Below, in pieces: positions 33,444-34,346 of a stretch of 34,413 nucleotides of DNA. A model generated the notes under the pieces. That model was not told the DNA's origin. It ran no database searches and was given only the letters and a program-made list of their open reading frames with translations. Numbering within the stretch: position 1 is the stretch's first letter; each line of letters starts with the position of its first letter. This DNA comes from a virus: positions 1 to 34,413 of the IMG/VR virus record IMGVR_UViG_3300025695_000056; one strand, 5' to 3'. Position numbers and translations under genes: made by a program.

Positions 33444-33893
33444 ATGCATTGGACATATAATGGTAAAGAAATAACTGAGATACCTGAAGAGTATGAAGGA
33501 TTTGTTTATCTTATTACCAATCTCACTAACAATCAGAAGTACATAGGCAAAAAACTAGCAAAGTTTAAAACTACCAAGCCACCACTCAAAGGCAAAAAGA
33601 ATAAACGTAGAGGCTACAAGGAAAGCGATTGGCGAACATACTATGGTAGTTCGGATAGACTAAACGCAGACGTAGCACAACTAGGCGAAGAAAACTTCAC
33701 AAGAGAAATATTATACCTATGTAAAGGTAGAGGCGAAATGTCCTACATAGAGGCAAGAGAACAATTTGATAGGCGTGTACTTGAAACAGATGAATACTAC
33801 AACGGTATCATTAATGTTAGAGTAGGCGGATCAGACAAACTCAAACAGGCATTGTTAGAACACAATATCCAGGCAAAGCAATCCAACACATAA
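33444..33893 (+). CDS. GIY-YIG endonuclease, Seg-like
   Basis: 149 residues. The GIY-YIG core is visible near the N-terminus: GFVYLITNLTNNQKYIGKK (Y22 in the first motif, Y33-I-G35 in the second), followed by a Lys-rich loop and WRTYYGSS. The expected catalytic glutamate is probably E103 in SYIEAREQFDRRV, and the asparagine is N120 or N124 in YYNGIINVRVG. This layout fits the Seg-type freestanding endonucleases of T4-like phages, which cut DNA and can spread by homing; a house-keeping role in degrading foreign DNA is also possible. No strong ribosome site is seen before the ATG, and there is a 50-base gap after the previous gene. It is the last gene before the structured noncoding stretch. 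Confidence 0.75.
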   Translation: MHWTYNGKEITEIPEEYEGFVYLITNLTNNQKYIGKKLAKFKTTKPPLKGKKNKRRGYKESDWRTYYGSSDRLNADVAQLGEENFTREILYLCKGRGEMSYIEAREQFDRRVLETDEYYNGIINVRVGGSDKLKQALLEHNIQAKQSNT

Positions 33894-34220
33894 GGTTGGC
33901 GGGCCAGATTGAAAACACCGCTGTGGAAAACGCTACCATATAGGAGCACACGTAACACATTGAGCGGCATCCGGTAGTAGGATGTTTGATTGATGTAGAT
34001 AGATTGTTGGCTGTCAAAAAACTGCACATTACACATAAAAACTCTTTAGCAATAGGAACGAAGCGAGAGGTAGCTGGAAACAGCGATGTCGACGTAGGTT
34101 GGGAAAGGTCAGAGCCCATTGTGTAGCAGTATAATAAAAACCTACTTCCGATCTCGGCTGGTGATACTCACATAATGTTTGAGAGGACGGGACCATAAAC
34201 AGGTTCCGTCTGACCAGATC
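33894..34220 (+). ncRNA. Candidate structured noncoding RNA, family unknown
   Basis: About 330 bases without a credible protein gene. By hand count G+C is about 45 percent here (81 of 170 in 34051-34220), against 32 of 120 in the next 120 bases. Possible stems: 33894-33901 with 33931-33937 (7 pairs, one bulge); GCTG-GAAA-CAGC at 34073-34084, a GNRA tetraloop hairpin; 34094-34100 with 34139-34145 (7 perfect pairs); 34167-34170 with 34180-34183; 34186-34194 with 34202-34210 (9 pairs, one G-U); and CTGGT 34158-34162 with ACCAG 34213-34217, which would close the last two hairpins into a three-way junction. It may be the 3' part of the early transcript or a processed RNA. I match it to no known family; strand is inferred from the loops and the neighbouring genes. 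Confidence 0.5.
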
Positions 34221-34238
34221 AATCTACATAATATTAAA

Positions 34239-34258
34239 TGCATATGCATAGCATATGC
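34239..34258. repeat. Palindromic duplicate GCATATGC
   Basis: Two copies of the self-complementary octamer GCATATGC (34240-34247 and 34251-34258) separated by ATA; the first is part of the palindrome TGCATATGCA (34239-34248). It could be a protein-binding site or a hairpin. Confidence 0.6.
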
Positions 34259-34259
34259 C

Positions 34260-34281
34260 TTGTTTATATATCATTAAACAA
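34260..34281. repeat. Inverted repeat TTGTTTA / TAAACAA
   Basis: Seven perfect pairs (34260-34266 with 34275-34281) around an 8-base loop. No T-run follows on the plus strand, so a simple intrinsic terminator is not supported. Confidence 0.55.
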
Positions 34282-34288
34282 ATATAAA

Positions 34289-34313
34289 TGTGTTGAGTGC
34301 TAACGAAAACACA
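34289..34313. repeat. Inverted repeat TGTGTT / AACACA
   Basis: Six perfect pairs (34289-34294 with 34308-34313) around a 13-base loop, directly followed by the 8-pair inverted repeat at 34313-34331 (sharing base 34313). Confidence 0.45.
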
Positions 34314-34331
34314 GTTGAACGTAGTTCAACT
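34313..34331. repeat. Inverted repeat AGTTGAAC-GTA-GTTCAACT
   Basis: Eight perfect pairs with a 3-base loop, ending eight bases before the late promoter at 34339. It could stop incoming early transcription, insulate the next late gene, or be an operator-like site; there is no following T-run. Confidence 0.6.
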
Positions 34332-34338
34332 AATAAGT

Positions 34339-34346
34339 TATAAATA
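34339..34346 (+). promoter_or_regulatory. Perfect T4-type late promoter (TATAAATA)
   Basis: Exact TATAAATA on the plus strand. T4 spacing predicts a start near 34352 and a leader of about 19 bases before the ATG at 34371, in line with the leaders of the leftward late genes. Confidence 0.8.

What the first reader, a model, noticed from the sequence alone, without database searches (positions are those of the whole stretch)
33894..34220. GC-rich, stem-rich candidate noncoding RNA downstream of the early operon
In an otherwise tightly packed genome, about 330 bases carry no credible gene, have clearly higher G+C than the flanking AT-rich sequence, and contain several good stems, a GNRA hairpin (34073-34084) and a possible three-way junction closed by 34158-34162/34213-34217. 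In AT-rich genomes this combination is a strong sign of a functional RNA. It carries no group I or group II intron core that I can see. It could be a phage regulatory RNA, a host-RNA mimic, or a stabilising 3' end for the gp46/gp47 messages.
Basis: partly seen in the sequence, partly recalled or inferred. Interest (0 to 1): 0.8.

Follow-up and report, generated by a model that had tools for sequence, protein, structure and literature searches.

The report
Large structured RNA in uncultured phages
Beside the DNA-repair genes of an uncultured T4-like phage lies a gene for a large, knotted, non-coding RNA that many other phages carry, including small phages of a different type; it matches no family in the RNA catalogue searched and holds a puzzling pair of repeats that change together.

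Summary
It belongs to a recurrent RNA family and is longer than noted: about 33885-34332, plus strand. 250 held loci (172 distinct cores) carry the core. Most are in T4-like phages near gp46/gp47, usually after a SegE-type GIY-YIG gene (111 of 122 in the pattern-scan set). Others are in small phages beside terminase genes, without GIY-YIG.

Helices covary (covariation score 0 of 500 shuffles), including a pseudoknot. No reading frame crosses it. Rfam 15 gives only chance-level hits.

Strangest: two short direct repeats (34170-34176, 34226-34232) flank a hairpin and vary together as direct, not complementary, copies (126 sequences, 0 of 2000 swaps). All 12 copies of a later, divergent set match too. 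No convincing third copy or internal antisense was found.

Function is not shown. Best guess: a trans-acting RNA whose pseudoknotted core binds a partner and whose twin repeats are recognition sites.

The parts
33444..33893 (+). Upstream gene: SegE-type GIY-YIG endonuclease (not part of the RNA; absent from several carriers)
   Evidence: Pfam SegE_GIY-YIG 2.1e-36; not found within 1.2 kb upstream in 11 of 122 distinct pattern-scan carriers
33885..33897 (+). 5' box AACACATAAGGTT; overlaps the GIY-YIG stop codon here, but is also seen after different upstream genes
   Evidence: a lenient form (ANAAGG) is in 111 of 131 carriers, so not universal
33898..33922 (+). Helix P1 (33898-33902/33918-33922), GCCAG in the loop
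   Evidence: 97.4% of cells paired, compensatory changes
33923..33951 (+). Helix P2 (33923-33925/33949-33951) and inner hairpin (33932-33933/33946-33947)
   Evidence: 100% and 98.9% paired; UA to AU, GC to CG, CG to UA changes
33957..33996 (+). Helix P3 (33957-33963/33990-33996) with a modular inner part of at least two forms
   Evidence: compensatory pairs in RNAalifold of 89 sequences; forms seen; no shuffle control run for P3
33998..34015 (+). Hairpin P4
   Evidence: 92.4% paired, 5 of 5 pairs changed on both sides in some sequences
34030..34125 (+). Long-range helix P5 (34030-34035/34120-34125); crosses S2, making a pseudoknot
   Evidence: five inner pairs 91.4% paired, all five changed on both sides; outermost pair 71.4%; permutation z 10.2
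34042..34069 (+). Hairpin P6 with GGAACGA (34055-34061)
   Evidence: 89.2% paired, 6 of 7 pairs changed on both sides; alone it folds weakly, z -0.17; GGAACGA in 137 of 137 pattern-scan carriers
34073..34084 (+). Variable arm, here a GAAA tetraloop hairpin; absent to over 100 nt in homologues
   Evidence: fold z -5.14
34094..34145 (+). Helix S2 (34094-34099/34140-34145), second half of the pseudoknot
   Evidence: 99.5% paired, 2 of 6 pairs changed on both sides, 3 never vary; GCAGGU/ACCUGC in L310 and relatives
34101..34117 (+). Hairpin P9 (GGG/CCC) with loop AAAGGUCAGAG
   Evidence: used as the search anchor, so its invariance is partly by selection; never varies in A1; GGUUAGAG form set
34170..34176 (+). 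Direct repeat copy 1 (ACAUAAU here), preceded by ACUC
34186..34210 (+). Hairpin P11 between the two repeats
   Evidence: 98.1% paired, 3 of 9 pairs changed on both sides, covariation score 0/500; fold z -5.24
34226..34232 (+). Direct repeat copy 2, preceded by AUCU
34240..34258 (+). A+T-rich hairpin of changing sequence (terminator-like by consensus scan)
   Evidence: in the alignment 12-21 of 89 rows break individual pairs
34290..34312 (+). Hairpin A: stem, GAG...CGA internal loop, stem
   Evidence: lenient pattern in 137 of 145 distinct sequences, outer stem 0/2000 swaps; strict pattern once in 4 of 5 long records, beside the RNA each time; 34289-34311 alone folds weakly, z -0.27
34313..34331 (+). 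Hairpin B, 8-bp hairpin
   Evidence: fold z -4.82; counterparts visible, not tested statistically
34339..34346 (+). TATAAATA, T4-type late promoter motif before the next gene (start 34371)
   Evidence: only match in the window; promoter role recalled, not tested

Best explanation
Shown by comparison of sequences: the region encodes a conserved non-coding RNA with a pseudoknotted core, variable arms and a 3' domain in which two identical short segments flank a hairpin. Inferred: it is made as the 3' part of the gp47-gp46-nuclease transcript (or from its own promoter in other phages), ends near hairpins A/B, and is released as a stable RNA. Inferred: it acts in trans, its invariant core binding a protein (perhaps a host one, since no shared partner gene was found in a partial comparison), while the twin repeats contact the same partner molecule twice, as bait or guide; a partner whose sequence differs between hosts would make both repeats change together.
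For: Covariation in eight helices (P1, P2 and its inner hairpin, P4, P5, P6, S2, P11), of which P5 and S2 form the pseudoknot. Conserved stretches that were not search anchors: GGAACGA in 137 of 137 and CCUNNUUCC in 140 of 140 pattern-scan carriers, as expected of an RNA that binds protein or catalyses. Two phage contexts. Six small-phage loci (five carriers and L300) share with two T4-like records only the RNA region, weak terminase matches and one weak match of an unassigned protein. Repeats covary as direct copies in 126 sequences, 0/2000, while their complementarity does not; 12 of 12 copies of the later set agree, 11 of them not seen before; no convincing internal antisense or third copy.
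Against: No transcript seen and no partner known. Shuffles and swaps are not corrected for phylogeny; 100 of the 126 repeats begin ACAUGA, so the signal rests on the others and on later positions. That the repeats are single-stranded is inferred from the lack of a covarying partner. A gene lies just upstream in most carriers, so a cis role is not excluded. Only fragments of the small phages were compared, so a shared partner gene could have been missed.
Confidence: 0.4

Rival explanations
1. A cis-acting 3' element: it protects or terminates the operon transcript and separates it from the late promoter that follows.
For: It follows the last gene of the plus-strand cluster directly, ends in hairpins and is followed by TATAAATA.
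Against: The same core sits in other gene contexts; it is far more elaborate than 3' stabilisers that I recall; repeat covariation is not explained.
Confidence: 0.2
2. A self-processing RNA (ribozyme or degenerate self-splicing element) that reacts at or near the two repeats, which must match because they serve as alternative strands of one reaction.
For: Conserved core with a pseudoknot; direct repeats with fixed, different left flanks ACUC/AUCU; a GIY-YIG gene before most copies.
Against: No Rfam ribozyme or intron match; it interrupts no gene that I could see; no convincing internal guide complementary to the repeats.
Confidence: 0.15
3. Part of a mobile unit spread by the adjacent homing-type nuclease; the RNA is target or cargo rather than a working RNA.
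For: SegE-like GIY-YIG ends within 1.2 kb upstream in 111 of 122 distinct pattern-scan carriers with enough sequence; the RNA occurs in different phage types.
Against: 11 of those 122 have no such gene there and keep the RNA; covarying helices mean the fold itself is selected; Melnitz has a 69% identical GIY-YIG and no RNA.
Confidence: 0.12
4. A DNA-level element (recombination or replication site) in which the direct repeats are strand-exchange sequences.
For: Direct repeats that stay identical resemble att-type or iteron repeats (recalled).
Against: The distance from the start of copy 1 to the hairpin varies from 13 to 31 nt, and helices over the whole element covary, with G-U pairs tolerated.
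Confidence: 0.06

Closest known systems
GOLLD, ROOL and OLE, ornate large RNAs (start of the abstract of PMC12286853 seen in listings)
   Same: Large, elaborate, conserved RNA of unsettled function; GOLLD is recalled to occur in phages
   Different: No Rfam match; about 450 nt; covarying direct repeats (none recalled for those RNAs)
Group I introns with GIY-YIG genes (T4 td, recalled)
   Same: Phage RNA with a long-range pseudoknot near a GIY-YIG gene
   Different: No Rfam match, interrupts no gene that I could see, an A-rich linker where P8 would be, nuclease gene optional
IS110 bridge RNAs and HEARO/omega RNAs (recalled)
   Same: Structured scaffold that displays short variable segments beside a hairpin or loop
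   Different: No constant protein partner found (partial comparison); repeats are identical direct copies rather than guides to two strands; no HEARO match
CsrB-type sponges and ToxI-type repeat RNAs (recalled)
   Same: The same short segment presented more than once in one RNA
   Different: Two copies only, sequence varies between phages, embedded in a large pseudoknotted fold

Membership tests
Any Rfam 15 family | Covariance-model match at the gathering score | tested here: not met
   0 matches in the window and in five divergent loci; E-value searches of the region and of 11 loci gave only chance-level hits, best E 0.53
Group I intron | Rfam group I core | tested here: not met
   no match
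Group I intron | Interrupts an exon or gene | tested here: not met
   lies between a complete upstream gene and a separate downstream reading frame
GOLLD / ROOL / OLE | Sequence-structure model of the family | tested here: not met
   no match, assuming those models are in the release, which I recalled and did not list
Structured non-coding RNA (general) | Compensatory base changes over homologues | tested here: met
Structured non-coding RNA (general) | No conserved reading frame | tested here: met
Structured non-coding RNA (general) | Discrete transcript | not testable with these tools
   no expression data held
HEARO / omega RNA (RNA-guided nuclease scaffold) | Constant neighbouring nuclease gene | tested here: not met
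   GIY-YIG not found in 11 of 122 pattern-scan carriers with enough upstream sequence
Self-cleaving ribozyme | Catalytic activity | not testable with these tools
   needs in vitro transcription

The most novel reading that the evidence does not exclude
The two repeats are twin guides: a phage-encoded RNA machine whose pseudoknotted body is shared by different phage types while its two identical 6-11-nt segments are retuned to each host or rival, giving a compact RNA-guided system of a kind not yet described.
Probability: 0.12. Interest if true: 0.92.

Novelty: new variant of a known kind. Interest (0 to 1): 0.74.

Why it matters
An RNA kept by phages that share almost nothing else in the stretches compared should do something basic to infection. 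No family in Rfam 15 matches it, and none of the six paper searches listed a paper that appears to describe it. Direct repeats that covary as copies, with no convincing complementary partner inside the molecule, are an unusual signature: they point to an outside partner and so to a testable question. Phage genomes are tightly packed, so about 450 nt of conserved RNA is strong evidence of benefit.

Tried and rejected
Single-sequence thermodynamics: only suggestive on the plus strand (z -1.64), nothing on the minus strand (z -0.49, 34 of 100 shuffles as good); P6 and hairpin A alone fold no better than shuffles. Protein-coding reading: rejected. The three-way-junction stem: rejected. A pairing of loop GUCAGA with UCUGAC after P11: considered because both are strongly conserved; not supported, since L310 and relatives change the first without a matching change in the second. 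Direct repeats as an antiparallel helix: rejected (control). Internal antisense to the repeats: best of 135 windows z 3.9, next to and overlapping copy 1 itself; several windows after copy 2 reach z about 3; not convincing. Third copy: apart from the two copies the best of 150 windows has z 3.5; not convincing. RNA in bacterial or archaeal genomes: 3 pattern matches, chance-like by their flanks; R1 gave E 0.16 and 0.28 for two and nothing for the third. Viral matches judged chance and left out of all counts: L245 (R1 E 0.021 over 26 positions), L250, L266 and L408. RNA in named phages: no DNA match for three queries (the tool may leave out near relatives); R1 found nothing below E 0.1 in 11 of 11 named records (two at 0.65 and 0.92). 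Shared partner gene: none apparent (the tblastn limit was 1e-3). An 'empty site': L300, whose terminase is 93% identical to that of L261, lacks the RNA core but keeps hairpins A and B and has a different folding stretch in its place.

Limits of the tests: the P4 test was invalid because its two windows overlapped (it gave z -3.7); one search replaces it. One search returned nothing because its pattern was too strict; one search replaces it. One search stopped with an error; one search is the repaired run. The 134 of 145 includes loci fetched through the GIY-YIG protein itself, so repeats the count on pattern-scan loci only (111 of 122). Sequences lacking an anchor motif were dropped before the permutation tests (140 rows kept, 126); two rows (L089, L207) missed the hairpin pattern and were not counted, though their printed sequence shows matching repeats. 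A1 used 35 of 64 candidate references, A2 47 of 64 (L112 and L120, the most divergent, were among those left out), A3 46 of 56 plus L310. The scans select for the core. A checkpoint note gives the repeats at wrong coordinates; those here are right.

Papers: search listings and the starts of abstracts only, and a word search of PMC12753301 (no hits). That none describes this RNA rests on those listings; the library holds few subscription journals.

Full report
What was checked. The window is a 34,413-base virus record. Long reading frames lie on the minus strand up to about 29,440 (not annotated here). On the plus strand follow a late-sigma-type gene, gp47- and gp46-type genes, a 69-aa frame and a SegE-type GIY-YIG gene. 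The finding begins directly after the GIY-YIG stop codon. ARAGORN and Rfam at gathering scores found nothing in the window. Folding the 327 nt alone gives z -1.64, so the case had to rest on relatives.

Relatives. The 80 best of 597 relatives of the GIY-YIG protein in IMG/VR were fetched. In 78 of 80 the DNA right after the gene matches the window element; the other two contigs end 30-40 nt after the match. A second form of the pattern returned 63, three of which look like chance by their flanks, and a third returned 5. A fourth, taken from the divergent copy L310, returned 13, of which 12 match the covariance model R1 at E <= 3.9e-9. In all 250 held loci carry the core, with 172 distinct 120-nt cores; several loci come from the same contig, and L001 and repeat fetches were left out. 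Of 12 records searched whole with the core pattern, 11 have exactly one copy; the twelfth, Melnitz, has none.

Contexts. Among 122 distinct carriers found by pattern alone and with at least 1.3 kb upstream, 115 have gp46/gp47 relatives and 111 have the GIY-YIG ending within 1.2 kb upstream. Four T4-like carriers (L398, L399, L402, L407) have no GIY-YIG there; in the three read, other frames precede the RNA and the box ACAUAAGG is present. Seven carriers (L112, L120, L204, L253, L261, L401, L403) have neither gene in the stretch held. Seven distinct carriers, partly the same ones, have a terminase large subunit of the L261 type. For two of these terminases, L253 and L261, the best named matches are HTVC111P-type pelagiphages, a lake phage and Vibrio phages at 41-54% identity. 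In L253, L261 and L310 the RNA lies upstream of the terminase genes. Among 80 relatives of that terminase only L299 (the L261 contig) and L310 have an R1 match at E <= 1, so the RNA is rare in that group. Six loci of small phages (five carriers and L300) were compared with two T4-like records: matches were the RNA region itself, as chance frames, weak terminase matches and one weak match of an unassigned protein. The RNA has therefore moved between different phages, or is very old.

Structure. On A1 (35 divergent sequences) the model with pseudoknot pairs 93.4% of cells against 81.1% in shuffles, with 110 cells changed on both sides against 34 (0 of 500); sliding the partners drops pairing to 36-45%. 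On A2 (47 sequences) P1, P2 and its inner hairpin pair 98.5% against 83.2%, with 64 cells changed on both sides against 21; two of the five measures there (pairs changed on both sides, 96 of 500 shuffles as high; further pair types, 422 of 500) do not exceed shuffles. On A3 (47 sequences) P11 pairs 98.1% against 96.3%, covariation score 0 of 500. Alignment-free swaps agree for P5, P6 and S2 (z 10.2, 14.8, 3.9) and for P1 and P11 (0 of 2000). The order of the pseudoknot is: P5 strand 34030-34035, P6, variable arm, S2 strand 34094-34099, hairpin P9, second P5 strand 34120-34125, A-rich linker, second S2 strand 34140-34145. The later copy L310 has GCAGGU/ACCUGC for GUAGGU/ACCUAC and GGGA/UCCC for GGG/CCC. 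GGAACGA occurs in 137 of 137, and CCUNNUUCC in 140 of 140, pattern-scan carriers with enough flank. The controls do not correct for phylogeny.

The direct repeats. Two copies of a short sequence flank P11. Variants include ACAUGAAG, ACAUGAUG, ACAUAAU, ACGUGAA, ACAGAAAG, ACAGGAA, GCAUGAAG, GCAUAAAG, GUAUGAA, AACUGAA and AUCAUCAAGU; both copies change together. Over 126 sequences the longest shared string averages 7.53 against 6.25 when copies are swapped (largest swapped mean 6.53, 0 of 2000), while complementarity between the copies is no better than swapped (1838 of 2000 as high). Shared lengths are 6 (2 rows), 7 (64), 8 (53), 9 (5) and 10 (2). 100 of the 126 begin ACAUGA, so the signal comes from the other types and from the last positions. 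The three bases before the copies differ in all 126 rows, typically CUC before copy 1 and UCU before copy 2. In the set, 12 of 12 copies have matching repeats of 7-11 nt, including the new type AACUCAAGUUU; L405 is the L310 contig already seen, and L399, L404, L409 and L410 look alike.

The 3' end. After copy 2 come an A+T-rich hairpin, hairpin A (GAG...CGA) and hairpin B. Hairpin A was found in 137 of 145 distinct sequences with a lenient pattern and its outer stem covaries; a strict form occurs once in 4 of 5 long records, each time beside the RNA. In isolation the window's hairpin A folds weakly (z -0.27). L300 keeps hairpins A and B without the core, so they may be a separable module. In the window TATAAATA follows at 34339-34346.

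What it is. A conserved, structured, non-coding RNA family that matches no Rfam 15 family. The listings of six paper searches show no paper that appears to describe it. The kind - large structured RNA of phages and bacteria with unsettled function - is known; the family and its covarying direct repeats appear new.

How it may work. Supported by comparison: sequence, fold, distribution. Inferred: transcription with the upstream operon and an end near hairpins A/B; a trans role; a protein bound by the core; an outside partner recognised by both repeats. The partner is the main unknown. I give the mechanism about 0.4 and the existence of a functional RNA far more.

Noticed in passing
L300:2226-2592: In a phage whose terminase is 93% identical to that of carrier L261, the RNA core is missing and a different non-coding stretch that folds strongly (z -2.63, 0 of 100 shuffles) sits before hairpins A and B; no Rfam match, and a pattern from it hit only its own contig.
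   Followed up: partly
window 33444-33893: PHROG 447, the best PHROG for this protein, is labelled 'NAD synthetase', and many phage records bear that name, although Pfam gives SegE GIY-YIG; likely a propagated misannotation.
   Followed up: no
L002-L081, after the GIY-YIG gene: 20 of 80 contigs end within 200 nt after the GIY-YIG match, as if shared RNA sequence broke the assemblies.
   Followed up: no
window 34339-34346: TATAAATA occurs once in the window against 5.2 expected in shuffles, and the one copy follows hairpin B.
   Followed up: no
L310:687-694: In this small phage a TATAAATA motif lies about 60 nt upstream of the R1 match, suggesting a promoter of its own.
   Followed up: no
L398, L402, L407, upstream of the RNA: In these T4-like carriers no GIY-YIG precedes the RNA; L398 and L407 have near it a frame containing ASKSKxKGKxFEREV that recalls a phage resolvase or nuclease (not tested).
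   Followed up: no
window 34073-34084 and homologues: The arm between P6 and S2 ranges from absent to over 100 nt, with similar hairpin modules recurring in otherwise different copies.
   Followed up: no
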